This document shows, piece after piece, positions 43 to 49,941 of a stretch of 64,000 bases of DNA. Position 1 is the first letter of the stretch, and each line of letters begins with the position of its first letter. This DNA is from Chloroflexota bacterium (GTDB taxonomy: Bacteria > Chloroflexota > Anaerolineae > UBA1429). The notes below the pieces were generated by a model. The model was not told where the DNA came from, did not search any database, and saw only the letters and a list, made by a program, of their open reading frames with translations. The stretch covers positions 1 to 64,000 of the forward strand of contig JAAYDC010000013.1 in assembly GCA_012729455.1 (NCBI GenBank), in the 5' to 3' direction. The position numbers were made by a program, and so were the translations under genes.

Positions 43-183
43 ATGCGCAGGATCATCAACGGCAGGGTTTACGACACAGACACGGCGAAACTGCTCGCCG
101 ACAACGAATTCGCGTCCAGCGACTCCAACGTCGCCCCCCATGCGGGGGCGTGGATTGAAATATACGTCACCTGGCGATACTGA
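43..183 (+). CDS. Truncated mobile-element-type small protein running into a CRISPR repeat
   Basis: An ATG with a good ribosome binding site (aggaggc, 6-7 nt upstream) opens a frame whose first 29 residues include RIINGRVYDTDTAKLLA. From memory this resembles the N-terminus of small proteins with a YDTxTA motif that are common on plasmids and integrative elements. After residue 29 the frame enters the first CRISPR repeat, reads through it, and stops in the spacer at 181-183. The C-terminal part is therefore repeat and spacer sequence, not protein family sequence. It is either a gene cut by an array or two sequences joined artificially. Family assignment is recall only. Confidence 0.35.
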   Translation: MRRIINGRVYDTDTAKLLADNEFASSDSNVAPHAGAWIEIYVTWRY

Positions 184-227
184 CGATACAGCGCCGTCGC
201 CCCCCATGCGGGGGCGTGGATTGAAAT
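130..227 (+). CRISPR. Terminal part of a type I-C-like CRISPR array (2 repeats, 1 full spacer)
   Basis: Two identical 32-bp repeats lie at 130-161 and 196-227. They begin GTCGCCCCCC, contain an inverted GCCCCC/GGGGGC core and end GTGGATTGAAAT, the form known for subtype I-C repeats. The complete spacer is 162-195 (34 bp). The ATTGAAAY end marks the 3' side, so the array would be transcribed left to right and 228 onward is its trailer side; no third repeat follows. The sequence left of 130 is not a repeat-spacer unit. No cas genes are in the window. Confidence 0.88.
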
Positions 228-1878: not shown

Positions 1879-2270
1879 AAATCGCCTGTATTACCGAAGA
1901 CGGCAAGACCATCAGTCAGCACTTTGGTCGCGCTCCCTACTATGTGGTATTCACCATCGACGATGGCGCGGTCGTTGCCACAGAAATGCGCGACAAGCTA
2001 GGCCATCAGCACTTTTCGACGAGCGAAACTTACCAGGAGCACGTATCGCCGCGCGGTACCGACCCCGCCAGCCACGAACGTCATCTGAGCATGGCCCAGA
2101 CCATTGCCGACTGTGAAGCACTGCTGTGCGGTGGGATGGGCTATGGCGCCTATCAGAGCATGCAGCGGCTCGGGATCAAACCGGTCGTTACGGATCTCGC
2201 CGATGCCGAGAGCGCTGCCCTCGCCTATGTGCGCGGTGAGGTGGTTGATCATACGGAACGGCTGCACTAA
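1875..2270 (+). CDS. NifX/NifB-type dinitrogenase iron-molybdenum cofactor family protein
   Basis: A 131-residue single-domain protein. The N-terminus MKIACITEDGKTISQHFGRA holds the ISQHFGRAPYY signature of the NifX/NafY/NifB C-terminal domain family, and the middle has ADCEALLCGGMGYGAYQS, the typical glycine-rich segment. These domains bind Fe-S or FeMo-cofactor precursors in nitrogen fixers, but many anaerobes carry stand-alone copies of unknown role next to MinD/ferredoxin ATPases, as here. An internal insertion (HFSTSETYQEHVSPRGT) is unusual. Translation is coupled to the PadR gene by an ATGA overlap. No nitrogenase genes are visible, so a role in nitrogen fixation is not supported. Confidence 0.85.
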   Translation: MKIACITEDGKTISQHFGRAPYYVVFTIDDGAVVATEMRDKLGHQHFSTSETYQEHVSPRGTDPASHERHLSMAQTIADCEALLCGGMGYGAYQSMQRLGIKPVVTDLADAESAALAYVRGEVVDHTERLH

Positions 2271-2295
2271 ATCCCTTCAGTATGGGGTTAGGGCG

Positions 2296-2430
2296 ATGGC
2301 AGCAGAAGCAAAGATCCGCAATGTGCTGACGCAGGTTCAGGACCCTGGATTGCGGCAGAGCATAGTTGGCAGGATCAGGAAGCCTGCCCAGATCCCTGGG
2401 CACGAGCCGCGGCTAATGAGCCGCGCATAG
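2296..2430 (+). pseudogene. Possible remnant of a DUF59/MIP18-type N-terminal domain
   Basis: A 44-codon frame starts MAAEAKIRNVLTQVQDPGLR and continues QSIVGRIRK before losing similarity. The pattern I-x2-VL-x2-V-x-DP-x-L-x2-SIV resembles the start of MIP18/DUF59 domains that precede Mrp/ApbC-type ATPases, which would fit the neighbouring MinD-like genes. It has only a weak ribosome binding site and no complete domain. It may be an eroded gene, a short real protein, or chance. Confidence 0.3.
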
Positions 2431-2443
2431 AGGATTGGTAAGA

Positions 2444-2477
2444 GGCCGATATGGGGGTGGTGGATTCCCCCACGGCC
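2444..2477 (+). promoter_or_regulatory. Stem-loop in the leader of the DUF5320 gene
   Basis: GGCCG at 2444-2448 pairs with CGGCC at 2473-2477, and inside it GGGGG pairs with CCCCC. This leaves a compact hairpin 28 nt before the DUF5320 start. There is no T-run, so it is not an intrinsic terminator; mRNA processing or stability is possible. Confidence 0.4.
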
Positions 2478-2505
2478 AACATTTGAAGCACACAGGAGGT
2501 GTAAC

Positions 2506-2847
2506 ATGCCAGGTGGAGATAGAACGGGACCTAGGGGAATCGGTCCGAGGACGGGACGAGCGGCTGGATTCTGTGCGGGCTACCCGTACCCCGGAAGTGC
2601 AGCCAGGTTCGGGCTTGGGCTGGGATGCGGAATGGGCCGTGGATGGCGCAACAGGTATTATGCCACGGGTTTGCCCGGTTGGGTGCGCGCAGGCTATCAG
2701 GCTGAGTGGGGGATGCCACCCGCTAGAGCCTATCGGGCGCCCAGCGCCGAAGAGGAGTCCGCCGCGCTCAAGCTGCAAGCCAAGGCTATAAGCGACGAGC
2801 TGGCGGCGATCAACGAACGGATCGCAGAGATAGAAAAGGGCGACTAG
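2506..2847 (+). CDS. DUF5320 family protein
   Basis: A 113-residue protein with strong ribosome binding site aggaggtgt 5 nt before ATG. The N-terminus MPGGDRTGPRGIGPRTGRA followed by GFCAGYPYPG is the hallmark of DUF5320, a small Gly/Pro/Arg-rich family. The middle is Gly-rich (GLGLGCGMGRG). The C-terminal 35 residues form a helix (ALKLQAKAISDELAAINERI) likely to be a coiled coil. The family is found almost always with NifX-like and MinD/ferredoxin proteins in anaerobes. Its function is unknown; a scaffold for metal or cluster handling is only a guess. Confidence 0.88.
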   Translation: MPGGDRTGPRGIGPRTGRAAGFCAGYPYPGSAARFGLGLGCGMGRGWRNRYYATGLPGWVRAGYQAEWGMPPARAYRAPSAEEESAALKLQAKAISDELAAINERIAEIEKGD

Positions 2848-3320
2848 CAGCCACAAGTCCGCCCGGTTGGACAGGGCAGGACAGACAAGGCGTACATAGA
2901 CACGCGAACCTGCCTGCCCGGGCAAAGCAGATGCATGGCGCGTCCAGCGAGAGATCGTAGCATCACAGTGCTCATCCTGATGGCCTCATAACCATGGTTA
3001 GGCAGGTGATGAGACACTAAAGCCCAGGTTCAGGCCACAAGCTGGTACGACGTAAGGCGCCTGGGCGCAGTCTTGAGATAGCCGGTTTCCTGACTCGCCC
3101 GCGGCACGTTCGGAGCTACCATTATGTGTCCATGCTTGTTCAGCCAGTTGCGCGGACGAGTTGCCAGAGATCACCGTAGTTCATCCGATAGACGAGGACG
3201 CGGTATGTGAGTTTCACGCCTTGCGTGAGGCCGACTGGCCCTTGTGCAGAACCTTATAGCGCAGGGCCTGCTTATCGAGACGGAATTTCAGGATCACATG
3301 ATCATTAAAAGGAGTTTATC
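2848..3320 (+). other. Gene-poor stretch with a possible eroded reading frame
   Basis: No intact gene is visible. From about 3077 a frame without a start codon reads LPEITVVHPIDEDAV-CEFHALREADWP and then stops. A one-base shift near 3237 continues LVQNLIAQGLLIETEFQDHM up to the next gene. The two pieces look like one protein C-terminus, suggesting a decayed gene, but I do not recognise the family. The last bases (aaaaggag, 3307-3314) are the ribosome binding site of the next gene. Confidence 0.25.
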
Positions 3321-3818
3321 ATGACAAAAGTAGTCGTCAGTAGTGTAGGTGATAGTCTGGATGCGCAGGTCAGCCCGGTCTTTGGGCGCTGTGCCTATCT
3401 GCTCTTTGTGGACACGGACACTATGGCCTTGCAGACTTTTGCCAATCCGGCCGTTGGCCTGTCAGGGGGTGCAGGCATTCGCGCTGCCCAGTTCGCGATG
3501 GACCAGGGCGCCCAAGCCGTGCTCACCTCCAATGTAGGCCCCAATGCGATGGCTGTGTTCCAGGCAGCCGGTGTTCCGGTCTATCCCGTGTGGGAAGGGA
3601 CCGTGCGGCAGGCTGTGGAGGCTTTCCAGCAGGGCAAGCTGGAGACGATCAACGAAGCAACAACTCCTGTCGATACCGGCAAGATGGGGGCCACCGGCTC
3701 ACTGCCTCCCTCCGGCGCCGGTATGGGGCGCGGGATGGGACAGGGGCGCGGAAGAGGACTTGGCCGAAGCCGAGGCGGGGCAGGCAGGGGCGGCGGATTC
3801 GGCGGAGGGCGCTCCTAA
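3321..3818 (+). CDS. NifX/NifB-type cofactor family protein with Gly/Arg-rich tail
   Basis: A 165-residue protein. Residues 1-120 form the NifX-like domain: VVVSSVGDSLDAQVSPVFGR, then AQFAMDQGAQAVLTSNVGPNA and AAGVPVYPVWEGTVRQAV. This is the form typical of stand-alone 'dinitrogenase iron-molybdenum cofactor' proteins. After residue 128 comes a low-complexity tail rich in Gly, Arg and Met (GMGRGMGQGRGRGLG). ATG follows aaaaggagtttatc. It is the second NifX-like protein of the cluster and differs clearly from the one at 1875, so they are probably not recent duplicates. Partner proteins are likely the ferredoxin and MinD-like ATPases directly downstream. Confidence 0.88.
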   Translation: MTKVVVSSVGDSLDAQVSPVFGRCAYLLFVDTDTMALQTFANPAVGLSGGAGIRAAQFAMDQGAQAVLTSNVGPNAMAVFQAAGVPVYPVWEGTVRQAVEAFQQGKLETINEATTPVDTGKMGATGSLPPSGAGMGRGMGQGRGRGLGRSRGGAGRGGGFGGGRS

Positions 3819-3862
3819 AGGCGCCTCGCACCTCGCCGGCACTCCAGGAAGGCTGATAAGAT

Positions 3863-4306
3863 ATGATTCGCATTGATATGGAGCGGTGCATCGGCTGTGG
3901 GCTGTGCGTCAGCGCATGTCACAAGGGGGCGATCAGCATCTGCGAGGACCTCGCCGTGCTGGACGCCTTCCGGTGTGACCAGTGTGGCGCCTGTATCAGC
4001 GCCTGCCCGCAGTCGGCGCTATCGAGCATAGCCAGCGCCATTCAGGTGGTGGAAGAGCAACCGCCGTTGTTGCCGGCTACCTTGATGCAAGCGGACGTGC
4101 TCGCGCCGCCCCGCACGCGTGCCGTCTGGTGGGCAAGCCTTGTGCCCTTTGTGGGGAGCCTGGCTACCGTCGCCATACGGGAGTTGGTGCCGCGCATGGT
4201 GGCGGCTCTGACGCGCTCGTCGCCACAGAACCCTAGTGAACGCACCGCCACGTCAGGACAGCGTCTGCGCCGACGCTATCGCCATCGGTCGCGAGACCGC
4301 TCATGA
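3863..4306 (+). CDS. Dicluster 4Fe-4S ferredoxin with a hydrophobic C-terminal segment
   Basis: A 147-residue protein. Two CxxCxxCxxxC motifs (Cys 9/12/15/19 and 38/41/44/48) bind two 4Fe-4S clusters, as in 2[4Fe-4S] ferredoxins. Residues about 86-106 (RAVWWASLVPFVGSLATVAI) are hydrophobic enough for one membrane segment or a membrane-associated helix, followed by a very basic tail (RLRRRYRHRSRDR). The tail is long for a ferredoxin of this kind. It lies between the second NifX-like gene and the first ATPase and probably carries electrons to, or clusters for, those ATPases. Confidence 0.88.
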   Translation: MIRIDMERCIGCGLCVSACHKGAISICEDLAVLDAFRCDQCGACISACPQSALSSIASAIQVVEEQPPLLPATLMQADVLAPPRTRAVWWASLVPFVGSLATVAIRELVPRMVAALTRSSPQNPSERTATSGQRLRRRYRHRSRDRS

Positions 4307-4337
4307 CAGGTAAGACTGGGATTAAGGACAAGACCTT

Positions 4338-5216
4338 GTGATTAAGATTGTTGTAGCCAGCGGTAAGGGCGGCACGGGGAAGACGCTCGTCGCCACGAGC
4401 CTGGCCCTGGTAGCCTCCGAAGACAGCGTGACTGCTTTTCTCGACGCCGATGTGGAGGCGCCCAACGCTGCTTTATTCCTGCATCCTCGTCTCGAGGAGC
4501 ACCTGCTCGTGGAGCGACTGGTCCCGGAAATAGACGCCAACCGATGCAATCACTGCGGGCGCTGCGCTGAGGTCTGTCAGTATAACGCCCTCGCCGTTCT
4601 GCCAAACCAGACGCTCGTCTTTTCTGAAGTTTGCCATAGCTGCGGGAGCTGCGCGCGTCAATGCCCGCAAGGGGCCATCCGCGAGGTGCCGCAAGCGATC
4701 GGCTCGCTCGACGTGGGTTGGGTCGACACGTCACTCTCCTTTGTCCAAGGGACGCTGGAGATCGGTCAGGCAATAGCCACGCCGGTTATCCGTGCGGTCA
4801 AACGTCACGCACGCGAGGCGGGATGGGATCGGTTCAGCGTCAACATCGTGGATGCGCCACCCGGCACCGCCTGTCCTATGGTCGAGTCGCTTAGGGGCGC
4901 CAGCGTCGTCCTCCTGGTGACGGAACCGACCTCCTTTGGGCTGCACGATCTTCGGTTGGCCATCGAGGTGGCGCGCGACATGCTCTCGCTGCCCGTGGCT
5001 GTGGCGATCAACAAGGAGAGGTCTGACAATACGATGATGGATGACTTTTGCCGTGCCGAGCAGATCCCGGTGGTGCTGCGCATCCCTCTGGATAGGCGCA
5101 TAGCGGTTGCCTACTCCCAGGGGATCCCCTTGGTACAGGCTTTGCCAGAATACCGCCCAAAGCTGGCCGAGGTGCTCCAGAATCTGCGACGCATTGCCAC
5201 GGAGGATCGAACATGA
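4338..5216 (+). CDS. MinD/ParA-type ATPase with inserted 2[4Fe-4S] ferredoxin domain (first copy)
   Basis: A 292-residue P-loop ATPase starting at GTG. The deviant Walker A motif SGKGGTGKT is at residues 8-16, with FLDADVEAPN at 34-43 and the Walker B-like VDAPPGTACP at about 171-180. A ferredoxin domain is inserted after the first lobe, with clusters at Cys 70/73/76/80 and Cys 99/102/105/109. This is the 'MinD superfamily P-loop ATPase with inserted ferredoxin domain' family, which occurs in pairs in methanogens, sulfate reducers and Clostridia. It is related to Mrp/Nbp35 Fe-S carriers. Its stop overlaps the start of the second copy (ATGA). Confidence 0.93.
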   Translation: MIKIVVASGKGGTGKTLVATSLALVASEDSVTAFLDADVEAPNAALFLHPRLEEHLLVERLVPEIDANRCNHCGRCAEVCQYNALAVLPNQTLVFSEVCHSCGSCARQCPQGAIREVPQAIGSLDVGWVDTSLSFVQGTLEIGQAIATPVIRAVKRHAREAGWDRFSVNIVDAPPGTACPMVESLRGASVVLLVTEPTSFGLHDLRLAIEVARDMLSLPVAVAINKERSDNTMMDDFCRAEQIPVVLRIPLDRRIAVAYSQGIPLVQALPEYRPKLAEVLQNLRRIATEDRT

Positions 5217-6097
5217 AGCAAGTGGTAGTGCTGAGCGGCAAAGGGGGTACAGGCAAGACTACTGTCGTAGCCGGATTGGCGCATCTGGCATCTCGAGATG
5301 GCTCTCTCATCCTGGTAGACGCCGATGTAGATGCTCCCAACCTGGAGCTGCTGCTGCAGCCGCAAGTCATCGCTGAGACGCCCTTTTACTCGAGCAAGGT
5401 GGCAGAGATCGCGCAGACAGAGTGTCTGCGATGCGGCGACTGCCAAGCAATATGTCGTTTCGAGGCTGTTGTTCAGAATGACGGAGACTATTGGGTGGAC
5501 CCCGTGGCCTGCGAGGGATGCGCGAGCTGCTATTATGCGTGTCCCGGCGGGGCGATCCAGATGCATGAGCATCTCGACGGGCAGTGGTACCACTCCGCCA
5601 CGCGCTTTGGCACCTTGTTCCACGCTCGTTTGGAAGCAGGGGCAGAGAACTCGGGCAAGATGGTCAGCACCCTCAGGCAGCAGGCACTGTTTCGGTCCCA
5701 CGAGGAGCAGGCCGACTGGATCATCGTAGATGGCGGCCCCGGCACTGGCTGTCCGGTCATCGCCGCGGTCACGGGAGCCGATCTGGCGGTACTGGTCAGC
5801 GAGCCAACCGTCTCAGGCGTGCATGATCTCAAGCGGGCGATGGGTATCTGCGATCATTTCCGGGTTCCCGTATTGGTATGTGTCAACAAGTGCGACATCA
5901 ACCCTGCCGTGGCGCAGGAGATCGTCGACTATTGCCGTCAACGCGCTGTGTCCGTCGTCGCCAGGGTTCCTTATAATGAGATCGTCCTGACCTCCATACA
6001 GCGGAGCTGTGCGGTAACCGAGCTGAACGACAACGTTGTAGCCAGAGAGATCCAGAACCTGTGGGTGGCAGTCAGGGGGCGTCTGGCTAAGACGTAA
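5213..6097 (+). CDS. MinD/ParA-type ATPase with inserted 2[4Fe-4S] ferredoxin domain (second copy)
   Basis: A 294-residue paralogue of the preceding gene, translationally coupled by ATGA. Walker A SGKGGTGKT is at residues 8-16, DADVDAPN at 36-43, cluster motifs at Cys 71/74/77/81 and Cys 100/103/106/110, and DGGPGTGCP replaces the DAPPGTACP seen in copy one. Such pairs probably form a heterodimer whose ATP hydrolysis drives electron or Fe-S cluster transfer. That is the common proposal for the family and is not proven. It ends the cluster; the next feature downstream is the tRNA-fMet on the other strand. Confidence 0.93.
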   Translation: MKQVVVLSGKGGTGKTTVVAGLAHLASRDGSLILVDADVDAPNLELLLQPQVIAETPFYSSKVAEIAQTECLRCGDCQAICRFEAVVQNDGDYWVDPVACEGCASCYYACPGGAIQMHEHLDGQWYHSATRFGTLFHARLEAGAENSGKMVSTLRQQALFRSHEEQADWIIVDGGPGTGCPVIAAVTGADLAVLVSEPTVSGVHDLKRAMGICDHFRVPVLVCVNKCDINPAVAQEIVDYCRQRAVSVVARVPYNEIVLTSIQRSCAVTELNDNVVAREIQNLWVAVRGRLAKT

Positions 6098-6192
6098 GGG
6101 CCCTTCGTTAAGGGCGTGCTGCGAGTCAGCCGTCAACTCAATTCGAGCCCATCGCGGTGCTTTATTCAGAGCATCATTGGGCATTGCACGGA

Positions 6193-6230: not shown

Positions 6231-6232
6231 AG

Positions 6233-6304
6233 TAGCGGGGACAGGACTCGAACCTGTGACCTTTGGGTTATGAGCCCAACGAGCTGCCACTGCTCCACCC
6301 CGCA
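6233..6304 (-). tRNA. Initiator tRNA-fMet (CAT)
   Basis: A cloverleaf folds on the minus strand: acceptor strand TGCGGGG, D-arm GGAGCAGTGGCAGCTC, anticodon arm GTTGGGCTCATAACCCAA, T-arm ACAGGTTCGAGTCCTGT and acceptor CCCCGCT with A73. The anticodon loop CTCATAA gives CAT. Three consecutive G-C pairs in the anticodon stem (GGG/CCC) and an unpaired 1-72 position are initiator identity features. Here 1-72 is T-T rather than the usual C-A. CCA is not encoded. It has its own promoter inside the end of the upstream gene. Confidence 0.9.
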
Positions 6305-6315
6305 TCAACAGCGGT

Positions 6316-6344
6316 AGTATACCCCAGAGGGGGATGCTAGTCAA
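6316..6344 (-). promoter_or_regulatory. Promoter of tRNA-fMet
   Basis: On the minus strand TTGACT (6344-6339) and TATACT (6321-6316) are spaced by 17 bp and end 11 bp before the tRNA. The -35 box overlaps the stop codon region of the DivIC/FtsB-like gene. Confidence 0.8.
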
Positions 6345-6762
6345 ATCCTCCCAGCAGCCTGCGCCAAGCATGCCAGTTGGGGTTATCGAACCAGCGCATT
6401 ACGGGTGCCGTCAAAGCGGGCGGCTGCGCCTCAGCCTCGGGAGTGGCGGGGATGTCGGTCGCCTGCGGAGTAGCCGTCACGACCTGCAGTACCACCACGT
6501 CTTCCTTTTTCCAGCCGGCGTCGCGCAGTTCCTTTTCCCGCCAGGCCGGGCTGCTCATGCGCTCATACTGGGCTCGCCAGTCAGCCTGTTGACGCTCGAG
6601 CTGCTGCACCTCGCTTTGCAGGCGTTCGCGCCAGTTGCGCAGGCGGATGGCCTCGAGCACCTTACCGCCAAAGGCCACTGCAAACATTACGCCCAGAATC
6701 ACAGCAGCCGCGCCGATAAAGCGAGTTGCCTTGGTTTGTTCAAGTTTGCTACGCCACGCCAT
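6337..6762 (-). CDS. Septum formation initiator (DivIC/FtsB-like)
   Basis: A 141-residue bitopic membrane protein: short basic N-terminus (MAWRSKLEQTKATR), one membrane helix at about residues 15-35 (IGAAAVILGVMFAVAFGG), then a coiled coil (LRNWRERLQSEVQQLERQQA) and the segment SSPAWREKELRDAGWKKEDV, which matches the FtsB/DivIC pattern where an aligned YxExxAR-like region follows the coil. A Thr/Pro/Ala-rich linker follows. ATG at 6762 is chosen; an in-frame GTG three codons upstream (6771) is possible. The family bridges division proteins FtsL and FtsQ at the septum. Upstream lies an unusual leader with its own terminator. Confidence 0.8.
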   Translation of the reverse strand: MAWRSKLEQTKATRFIGAAAVILGVMFAVAFGGKVLEAIRLRNWRERLQSEVQQLERQQADWRAQYERMSSPAWREKELRDAGWKKEDVVVLQVVTATPQATDIPATPEAEAQPPALTAPVMRWFDNPNWHAWRRLLGGFD

Positions 6763-6804: not shown

Positions 6805-6834
6805 AAAAAGACCCCTCCTGCGAGGGGTCTTTTT
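6805..6834 (-). terminator. Intrinsic terminator between leader peptide and DivIC/FtsB-like gene
   Basis: AAAAAGACCCCTC pairs with GAGGGGTCTTTTT around a 4-nt loop. The A-run and T-run make it bidirectional. On the minus strand it lies 7 nt after the leader hairpin and 43 nt before the downstream start, so it can act as an attenuator for that gene. Confidence 0.88.
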
Positions 6835-6840
6835 CGACGT

Positions 6841-6909
6841 GCGCCCTAGCTCCCACTCCGAGGTGATGCTAGGGCGCTTCTAGTACAATGGTCCATTCAC
6901 ATCACCTCC
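6841..6909 (-). promoter_or_regulatory. Candidate Shine-Dalgarno-sequestering leader element (possible pseudoknot)
   Basis: The minus-strand RNA has an extended Shine-Dalgarno AAAGGAGGTGAT (6912-6901) that fully matches the 16S 3' end. Downstream, a perfect 10-bp hairpin GCGCCCTAGC/GCTAGGGCGC (6877-6868 with 6850-6841) has a 17-nt loop. The loop starts with ATCACCTC, a copy of the anti-Shine-Dalgarno that can pair with the upstream site (9 bp, 6908-6900 with 6868-6860). The two pairings are compatible except at base 6868, as in an H-type pseudoknot. Confidence 0.6.
6846..6896 (-). CDS. 16-residue leader peptide MDHCTRSALASPRSGS
   Basis: A tiny frame starts with ATG 8 nt after a full-length Shine-Dalgarno sequence and ends with TAG inside the distal arm of the 10-bp leader hairpin. 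Its codons for Ala-Ser-Pro-Arg form the anti-Shine-Dalgarno-like loop. A consensus-like promoter precedes it and an intrinsic terminator follows. Its position suggests a translated leader that tunes expression of the DivIC/FtsB-like gene. I know no homologue; it could also be an independent tiny protein. Confidence 0.5.
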   Translation of the reverse strand: MDHCTRSALASPRSGS

Positions 6910-6955
6910 TTTTCGTTGGGATAGCAAGTTTGGGATGGTATGAAACCACCAATCC

Positions 6956-6984
6956 ATTATGACCGACCCGCAACGGTTTGTCAA
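6956..6984 (-). promoter_or_regulatory. Promoter of the leader peptide transcript
   Basis: On the minus strand TTGACA (6984-6979) and CATAAT (6961-6956) are separated by 17 bp. Transcription would begin about 40-45 nt before the extended Shine-Dalgarno sequence. Confidence 0.8.
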
Positions 6985-41681: not shown

Positions 41682-41850
41682 GGGACTCCCGCCCTGCCGT
41701 GTGCCGAGTGTCTTGAACCTGCTTTCGCAGGTGGGCACCTTCCTACGGTCAGGCCTCCCAAAAGGGAAGCGAGGCCGTGAATGGATTCCAGCGCCCTAGA
41801 CAGATGTGTTGGCTCAAGACAAGAGCATCACGAACAACGCAGGAGTACGC
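41682..41850 (+). ncRNA. Structured non-coding RNA, 6S-like candidate
   Basis: The gap between convergent rpiR and aspS is highly structured. Outer pairings ACTC/GAGT (41685-41688 with 41843-41846) and CTGC/GCAG (41694-41697 with 41839-41842) close a domain. TGTCTTGA (41709-41716) pairs perfectly with TCAAGACA (41814-41821). Inside lie hairpins ACCTGC-tttc-GCAGGT (41717-41732) and GGCCTC/GAGGCC (41752-41776). A rod of about 165-180 nt with internal bulges fits 6S RNA, the RNA polymerase-binding regulator, but I cannot confirm the family. The strand is assumed. Confidence 0.5.
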
Positions 41851-49791: not shown

Positions 49792-49811
49792 CTGCAGGCA
49801 ACCGATGCGCA

Positions 49812-49930
49812 ACTCTCCTTTCCAAAGATGGGAGGCGTGCGCGTTTCCACGCACACCCTCGCCAGCCCCTTCCGGGGCTGGACCGATCATCCGCCATCAC
49901 CGTGACCAAGGTCGGATGACTCGAAGAGTG
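49812..49930 (-). promoter_or_regulatory. Moco/Tuco-type riboswitch aptamer controlling tupBCA
   Basis: On the minus strand the leader folds with P1 ACTCTTC (49929-49923) pairing with GGAGAGT, a CAGCCCC-ggaa-GGGGCTG hairpin, and GTGTGCGT-ggaa-ACGCGCAC extended by GAGGG/CCTCC. The 3' part GCCTCCCATCTTTGGAAAGG matches, from memory, the conserved end of the Moco RNA motif. Context (tungstate transport and molybdopterin genes) strongly supports this. Moco RNAs sense molybdenum cofactor; variants in tungsten users are called Tuco. The family match has not been computed. Confidence 0.8.
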
Positions 49931-49941
49931 ACTATCAAGTT

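What the first reader, a model, noticed from the sequence alone, without database searches (positions are those of the whole stretch)
6841..6984. Leader with full-length Shine-Dalgarno, mimic of the 16S 3' end, 16-codon ORF and attenuator
A minus-strand promoter drives an RNA whose ribosome binding site is fully complementary to the 16S tail. A downstream hairpin loop carries ATCACCTC, the same sequence as the ribosomal anti-Shine-Dalgarno, and can pair with that site over 9 bp. The loop lies inside a 16-codon ORF, so translation would melt the structure. An intrinsic terminator follows, then a DivIC/FtsB-like gene and tRNA-fMet. This looks like a sensor of free ribosomes or of initiation capacity that controls a division gene. 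I know of no described element like it.
Basis: partly seen in the sequence, partly recalled or inferred. Interest (0 to 1): 0.7.

Follow-up and report, generated by a model that had tools for sequence, protein, structure and literature searches.

The report
Self-masking mini-gene RNA of Chloroflexota
A very small gene found in many lineages of the bacterial phylum Chloroflexota carries a full-length ribosome-binding site that can pair with a matching "anti-ribosome-site" sequence inside its own 16-codon reading frame, so its predicted short RNA would likely switch between open and closed depending on whether a ribosome starts on it; what the RNA does for the cell is unknown.

Summary
At window 6984-6805 (minus strand) lies a complete small transcription unit: promoter, full-length Shine-Dalgarno (SD), 16-codon ORF, 10-bp hairpin whose loop is complementary to the SD, terminator. 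Covariance models find the same unit in 245 of 396 genomes of the class and in other classes of the phylum, usually once per genome; no Rfam family covers it. Hairpin arms covary (9 of 10 pairs changed on both sides, 77 sequences). SD and anti-SD change together (0 of 5000 permutations as good). Reading frame and stop position are kept. Best reading: a stand-alone, translation-gated small mRNA/RNA whose SD is masked by its own ORF and probably kept open by ribosomes. Masking rests on sequence evidence; the ribosome-gated switch and the biological output are inferred. A "ribosome-availability sensor" remains possible but untested.

The parts
6979..6984 (-). -35 box TTGACA
   Evidence: sequence; promoter with at most 2 of 12 mismatches in 58 of 77 homologous units versus 1 of 77 shuffled once
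6956..6961 (-). -10 box CATAAT, 17-nt spacer; predicted transcript start near 6949
   Evidence: sequence; similar position in relatives; transcript start is inferred
6919..6925 (-). conserved 5' box GCTATCC (GCYAUCY in most Anaerolineae-type units, GCCGUCC-like in most other-class units)
   Evidence: alignments A3, A6; role unknown, may weakly pair with the SD
6901..6913 (-). full-length Shine-Dalgarno AAAAGGAGGTGAT
   Evidence: sequence; AAGGAGGTGAT occurs only here in the assembly
6846..6896 (-). 16-codon ORF MDHCTRSALASPRSGS* (stop TAG inside the start of the 3' arm)
   Evidence: frame kept in 74 of 76 and 73 of 77 units
6868..6877 (-). hairpin 5' arm GCGCCCTAGC
   Evidence: stem: 9 of 10 pairs with changes on both sides in 77 sequences, 99.7% paired
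6860..6869 (-). anti-SD GCATCACCTC (last 2 nt of the 5' arm plus 8 nt of loop)
   Evidence: predicted duplex with own SD of -16.4 kcal/mol or better in 77 of 77; own better than permuted, 0/5000; 18/20000 on 26 collapsed types
6841..6850 (-). hairpin 3' arm GCTAGGGCGC
   Evidence: as the 5' arm
6805..6834 (-). intrinsic terminator AAAAAGACCCCTC-GCAG-GAGGGGTCTTTTT
   Evidence: sequence; terminators found in 72 of 77 units versus 16 of 77 shuffled once
6337..6762 (-). downstream ftsB/divIC/ftsL-like gene (one TM plus coiled coil by eye); neighbour, not part of the unit
   Evidence: no Pfam or NCBIfam hit for this protein; FtsL profile hits below cut-off in two homologues
6232..6304 (-). tRNA-Met(CAT), probably initiator; neighbour

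Best explanation
This is a stand-alone small gene of Chloroflexota whose predicted ~145-nt RNA carries a full-length Shine-Dalgarno site that can pair with an anti-Shine-Dalgarno strand inside its own 16-codon ORF, and which is likely a ribosome-gated switch. Shown by sequence: promoter-like and terminator-like ends, a covarying hairpin, SD and anti-SD changing together, the ORF kept in frame through the hairpin with its stop at the 3' arm. Inferred: as the RNA is made, the SD comes out first; once the anti-SD emerges it masks the SD unless a 30S subunit has already loaded; a translating or terminating ribosome covers the anti-SD and 3' arm and so keeps the site open, while an empty RNA closes. 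The 3' arm competes for, or stacks with, the anti-SD strand (in other-class members such as L298 the 3' arm is itself a copy of the SD region). The output (peptide, RNA stability, or action in trans on ribosomes or other RNAs) is unknown; the weak amino-acid constraint makes the act of translation a likelier signal than the peptide.
For: Unit recurs: R1, built without the window's sequence, finds it at 6e-17 and hits 245 of 396 class genomes, 237 of them once; R2 hits 46 of 55 same-class genomes and 54 of 345 others of a phylum sample at E<=1e-3; R3, built from 25 other-class sequences, hits 70 of 400 phylum genomes, 68 outside the class, 57 of these at E<=3.5e-7 (25 gave the seed, 32 did not), and hits the class member G047 at the place R2 hits. 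Hairpin covariation: 9 of 10 pairs, 127 double-change cells, 0/500 shuffles; 5 of 10 pairs in other classes, 1/500. SD/anti-SD: 0 of 5000 permutations; 0 of 20000 on 67 distinct combinations and 18 of 20000 on 26 collapsed types; in 25 other-class sequences SD and 5' arm pair in 99.6% of cells, 31-62% when slid. Frame: 74 of 76, 73 of 77; stop -17 to +2 nt from the 3' arm in 76 of 77. Promoter 58 of 77, terminator 72 of 77. Variable, often convergent neighbours.
Against: No expression, probing or ribosome data. Predicted SD accessibility is already low before the anti-SD in Anaerolineae-type units (0.22 early, 0.08 mid, 0.17 full; window 0.35, 0.20, 0.34) and does not recover in the full RNA in other classes (0.68, 0.39, 0.30), so the folding model supports masking but no clean release by the hairpin. 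In other classes SD/arm pairs change on one side only (five on the arm, two on the SD), and the shuffle control does not separate them from chance (500 of 500). The first seed set was selected for exact SD and loop, so their invariance in A3 is not evidence. Permutations do not model relatedness. The unit was not found in several families of the class (26 of 34 chosen genomes without a match, the other 8 at E 0.003-0.05).
Confidence: 0.62

Rival explanations
1. Cis attenuator or leader peptide that controls the gene downstream (ftsB-like here) by terminator read-through or translational coupling.
For: In this genome and in L102 the ftsB-like gene follows directly on the same strand; in some families a same-strand gene follows (AIR-synthase-like in a 7-locus cluster; homoserine dehydrogenase in L253, L254, L256, L257; one of each checked by Pfam).
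Against: Downstream genes differ between lineages; 29 of 76 loci have a convergent HNH or kinase gene close behind; no run of regulatory codons in the ORF (peptides).
Confidence: 0.1
2. Trans-acting RNA: the anti-SD strand of the hairpin base-pairs with Shine-Dalgarno sites of other mRNAs and represses them.
For: The strand is an 8-10 nt SD complement held in the hairpin in most members.
Against: When the loop departs from the general anti-SD, the unit's own SD departs with it (f28, f36, f22), which points to self-pairing; no targets were tested.
Confidence: 0.12
3. Ribosome decoy: an unusually complete SD binds and holds 30S subunits or the 16S 3' end, and the anti-SD releases them; a buffer for initiation capacity.
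For: Full-length SD; predicted SD:16S-tail energy (mean -20.5) nearly equals SD:own anti-SD (mean -21.4 kcal/mol); no other AAGGAGGTGAT in the assembly.
Against: One gene per genome would need very high expression; the conserved ORF and stop position are then unexplained.
Confidence: 0.1
4. A small-peptide gene (like type I toxin mRNAs) in which the masked SD only prevents premature translation.
For: Same layout as aapA3 mRNA, where anti-SD hairpins in the leader and ORF mask the SD during transcription (PMC6733600, passages).
Against: Peptides are short, polar and variable at the C end; 55 of 194 single-change codons are synonymous (28%) versus about 18% expected at equal rates, a weak amino-acid constraint.
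Confidence: 0.06

Closest known systems
AapA3/AapA1 and hok-type (type I toxin) mRNAs
   Same: Small ORF whose SD is masked by anti-SD sequences, partly inside the ORF, during and after transcription (PMC6733600, passages read)
   Different: Here no hydrophobic toxin, no antisense partner known (none was searched for), a full-length SD, stop codon set at the hairpin, and spread as a mostly single-copy gene over a phylum
Ribosomal-protein S15 (rpsO) pseudoknot operator (recalled; not read)
   Same: SD region and a downstream structure interact near the start codon
   Different: No ribosomal-protein gene seen downstream; the pairing strand lies in a hairpin within the ORF
Transcription attenuators with leader peptides (trp/his type, recalled)
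   Same: Short ORF overlapping a hairpin, followed by a terminator
   Different: No regulatory codon run and no conserved downstream gene
Extended-SD small ORFs of Staphylococcus aureus (PMC13009471, abstract and outline only)
   Same: Extended SD pairing, small ORFs, and a small uORF acting as leader peptide
   Different: Different phylum; the parts I saw describe no anti-SD hairpin family

Membership tests
Rfam families (release 15) | match at gathering score over the element | tested here: not met
   none on the window element (only sub-gathering matches at E up to 10) nor in 40 related loci, 3 of them uncertain members (tRNAs only)
Cis transcription attenuator / leader peptide | conserved same-strand regulated gene after the terminator | tested here: not met
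   29 of 76 loci with a convergent HNH or kinase gene close behind; ftsB-like in 5 of 76
Cis transcription attenuator / leader peptide | run of regulatory codons in the ORF | tested here: not met
   peptides listed show none, by eye
Cis transcription attenuator / leader peptide | intrinsic terminator after the hairpin | tested here: met
   72 of 77
Type I toxin mRNA (hok/aapA) | SD masked by an internal anti-SD | tested here: met
   (sequence evidence only); consistent but not separated from its shuffles
Type I toxin mRNA (hok/aapA) | hydrophobic toxin peptide | tested here: not met
   peptides such as MDHCTRSALASPRSGS are short and polar
Type I toxin mRNA (hok/aapA) | antisense RNA antitoxin | not tested
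   no antisense promoter search was made
Dual-function small RNA | own promoter and terminator | tested here: met
   predicted from sequence
Dual-function small RNA | regulates other RNAs by pairing | not testable with these tools
   needs expression and target data
Ribosomal-protein leader | ribosomal-protein gene directly downstream as a rule | tested here: not met
   neighbours vary; not every neighbour was identified

The most novel reading that the evidence does not exclude
A phylum-wide RNA gauge of translation initiation: a mostly single-copy RNA carrying an exceptionally complete ribosome-binding site and a built-in copy of its competitor. If a 30S subunit arrives before the anti-SD is transcribed, the RNA stays open and is translated; if not, it locks. 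The ratio of open to locked RNA would then report free-ribosome or initiation capacity to the cell through the RNA or its peptide, for the ribosome roughly what 6S RNA is for RNA polymerase.
Probability: 0.2. Interest if true: 0.88.

Novelty: new variant of a known kind. Interest (0 to 1): 0.72.

Why it matters
A small transcription unit kept, usually once per genome, across many families of a deep bacterial phylum, with covarying structure, a kept reading frame and self-pairing between its ribosome site and its own ORF, is the kind of signature left by a core regulatory RNA, yet neither Rfam nor the open-access paper searches made here turned up a description of it. If the gating holds, it shows how a bacterium can turn ribosome loading itself into a signal. 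It also gives a directly testable handle on translation control in Chloroflexota, and covariance models to find the RNA elsewhere.

Tried and rejected
Rejected: (1) control of ftsB or of the tRNA (neighbours vary). (2) Plain 16S mimicry: loops follow their own SD, not the 16S tail. (3) A peptide-only gene: amino-acid constraint is weak (transition bias was not modelled, so even the small excess of synonymous changes may be neutral). (4) Known Rfam families. (5) Pairing of the GCYAUCC box with the SD: plausible in folds, but no covariation was seen by eye; unresolved. (6) The conserved nGTnGT codons (AGTAGT) after the start: no pairing partner found by eye.

Led nowhere: profile scans of the downstream protein; paper searches; 16S search in the own assembly. 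A search for R2 in other phyla could not be run; as a substitute R2 was run on 94 non-Chloroflexota loci already held, best score 24.7 bits, against 54-101 bits for the 77 members scored with R1. Hits of R2 in other classes at 22-37 bits are borderline one by one; they count here only where R3 confirms them or the layout is plain.

L113 passed the filter by chance and was dropped (76 of 77 kept); identical copies were merged there, and that filter required an ATG. A3 used 40 of the 76 units and left out short-loop ones, the window among them. One search used 77 of the 82 sources (near-duplicates L243, L245, L247, L252, L254 left out); two partial reverse-strand matches fell out with the stricter cut-off. 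Of 40 other-class loci fetched (L291-L330) A6 used 25; L305-L307 and L310 were judged not members, L299, L300, L308 and L329 uncertain, L330 gave no unit, and L291, L295, L325-L328 have a different hairpin. In L315 and L327 the usual stop is missing. A first display of sequence beside the ftsB-like gene showed the downstream side for minus-strand loci, so absence beside that gene was read instead from contig positions. A first count of HNH neighbours from the cluster was replaced by the motif count.

Full report
What is there. On the minus strand, 6984-6805, the window holds a compact transcription unit: TTGACA-17-CATAAT, a ~36-nt leader (from a predicted start) with a GCTATCC box, AAAAGGAGGTGAT, a 16-codon ORF (MDHCTRSALASPRSGS), a perfect 10-bp hairpin whose loop begins ATCACCTC, and an intrinsic terminator. 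The leader with terminator folds better than all 200 dinucleotide shuffles (z -5.25). The 54-nt piece ending at the anti-SD folds as a 10-bp SD:anti-SD helix (-16.2 kcal/mol; 3 of 200 shuffles as good); once the 3' arm is present the hairpin wins (-27.9). AAGGAGGTGAT occurs once in the 2.64-Mb assembly, here, about what chance gives.

Conservation, first pass. The ftsB-like protein search led to G001, another genus of the same family, whose locus L004 carries the same unit in front of the same gene with the same hairpin arms and loop start. In G002, G003, G008, G011 and G036 the unit lies on another contig than the ftsB-like gene, in G005, G010 and G012 at 1-2.7 kb from it. From these titles the window's phylum is taken as Chloroflexota. 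The pattern GGAGGTGAT-N(10-40)-ATCACCTC then matched in 92 of 396 genomes of the class, not all of them this unit; the reversed control matched in one genome that I see.

Conservation without pattern bias. A covariance model (R1, from 40 sequences without the window) finds the window's unit at 6e-17 and a match in 245 of 396 class genomes at E<=0.01, down to 5e-25, two matches in 8 genomes and one in 237. R2 (77 sequences) finds 46 of 55 same-class genomes in a phylum sample and weaker but recurrent matches in 54 of 345 others. Read by eye, many of these show the same layout: TTGAC-type promoter, GCCGUCC-like box, AAAGGAGGTGATGCCCATG, a 13-16-codon ORF, hairpin, terminator. R3, built from 25 of them, matches 70 of 400 phylum genomes, 68 outside the class, 57 of those at E<=3.5e-7 (25 gave the seed), including families not in its seed (f65, f81, f85, f88, f102, f110, f118), and hits the class member G047 at the place R2 hits. 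So this is most simply one family spread over the phylum. It is not universal: with laxer filters 26 of 34 chosen class genomes without an earlier match still gave none, the rest only E 0.003-0.05. Control: 94 non-Chloroflexota loci preselected for the pattern score at most 24.7 bits.

Structure. In 77 class sequences the hairpin stem is 99.7% paired, 9 of 10 pairs change on both sides, 127 double-change cells, 0 of 500 shuffles as high, and slid versions far lower (the alignment was fitted to this stem). In a free MAFFT alignment of 40, 6 of 10 pairs do. In 25 other-class sequences 5 of 10 pairs change on both sides (1 of 500 shuffles), 94% paired. An inner stem just after ATCACCTC also varies in concert (CGG..CCG, CCC..GGG, CTG..CAG, GCG..CGC; seen by eye).

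SD and anti-SD. Their invariance in the first seed is built in by the search pattern and proves nothing. In the unbiased set they vary together: family f28 has GGAGGAGGTGATGTC with GGCATCCCTCCTC; f22/f36 have GGAGGTGGTGC with GCACTGCCTCC or GCACTACCTCC; L263 pairs AAAGGAGGTGATGCC with GGCGTCACCTCCTTT. Own-pair duplex energy averages -21.4 kcal/mol, permuted -20.6 (sd 0.18), 0 of 5000 permutations as low. On 67 distinct combinations 0 of 20000 and on 26 collapsed core types 18 of 20000 are as low; relatedness is not modelled. The mean energy with the recalled 16S tail is -20.5, so the internal strand and the ribosome look like near-equal competitors. In the other classes seven of ten SD/arm pairs vary, five by the arm and two by the SD, always to another standard pair in all but one cell (99.6% paired; slid versions 31-62%), but never on both sides, and the shuffle control does not separate this from chance; the 3' arm covaries with the 5' arm. 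In L298 the 3' arm GGTGATGCCC is a copy of the SD region, so there the two pairings exclude each other. In the class they share two or three bases and could otherwise coexist as a pseudoknot (inference).

Reading frame. SD-to-ATG spacing and ATG-to-loop distance vary, yet the frame reads ..A-S-P.. across the loop in 74 of 76 units and keeps the same phase in 73 of 77, and the stop starts -17 to +2 nt from the 3' arm in 76 of 77. Amino acids are only weakly constrained: 55 of 194 single-change codons are synonymous (28%) versus about 18% expected under equal rates. Keeping the frame and stop with little peptide constraint suggests that passage of the ribosome matters more than the peptide (inference).

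Stand-alone gene. Promoters within 2 of 12 mismatches in 58 of 77 (one letter-shuffle each: 1), terminators in 72 of 77 (shuffle: 16). Neighbours differ: a convergent HNH nuclease begins within 260 nt behind the hairpin in 19 of 76 loci (motif count), a convergent response-regulator/GAF/histidine-kinase gene in 10, a same-strand AIR-synthase-like gene in a 7-locus cluster, an ftsB-like gene in 5; homoserine dehydrogenase follows in four f36 loci. One HNH, one kinase, one AIR-synthase and one homoserine-dehydrogenase representative were confirmed by Pfam. The ftsB link is lineage-specific.

Mechanism proposed. Shown by sequence: capacity for masking, covariation, frame, unit borders. Inferred: the SD can load a 30S subunit only before the anti-SD is made or when the anti-SD is held elsewhere; a ribosome on the ORF unwinds the hairpin, and at the stop it covers the 3' arm, so translated copies stay open and empty ones close. 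Folding calculations support masking (mean SD accessibility falls from 0.22 to 0.08 in 77 class units and from 0.68 to 0.39 in 26 others as the anti-SD appears) but show no clean release by the completed hairpin (0.17 and 0.30), so ribosome action rather than spontaneous refolding would have to open it. The output is unknown.

Known systems. The nearest mechanism in print that I read is the aapA3 toxin mRNA with anti-SD hairpins in leader and ORF (PMC6733600, passages); extended SD sites at small ORFs are described in S. aureus (PMC13009471, abstract and outline). PMC2864571 lists a Chloroflexi-1 motif and others in Chloroflexi (passages); no Rfam family reaches its gathering score on the unit. 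Paper searches (listings only) gave no description of this unit; subscription journals are not covered.

Noticed in passing
window 129-227 (+): Two identical 33-nt direct repeats (CGTCGCCCCCCATGCGGGGGCGTGGATTGAAAT) 66 nt apart at the window start, CRISPR-like by eye; whether an array runs off the edge was not checked.
   Followed up: partly
window 41682-41848 (-) and 49799-49938 (-): 6S RNA (Rfam RF00013) and a Moco/tungsten riboswitch aptamer (RF01055) at gathering score.
   Followed up: no
window 2000-6100 (+): Cluster of ORFs that look by eye like small dinitrogenase-cofactor proteins, a ferredoxin and MinD/ParA-type ATPases with 4Fe-4S motifs (the ATPase at 5213-6097 confirmed by Pfam).
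   Followed up: no
window 6919-6925 (-), and alignments A3/A6: Nearly invariant box GCYAUCY (GCCGUCC-like in other classes) about 10 nt upstream of the SD; no partner shown.
   Followed up: partly
window 6878-6890 (-) and homologues: Codons after the start mostly keep an nGTnGT (often AGTAGT) sequence while the amino acids vary, which looks like an RNA-level motif.
   Followed up: partly
L003 1393-1465, L004 1951-2023, L016 1962-2116: The ftsB-like gene is followed by tRNA-Met genes in some relatives; L016 shows it without the small RNA unit in the stretch displayed.
   Followed up: no
families f20, f39, f43, f46, f54 of the class: The 13 genomes tested from these families had no significant match (f39 and f43: one match each at E 0.02-0.05), which points to clade-wise loss or strong divergence.
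   Followed up: partly
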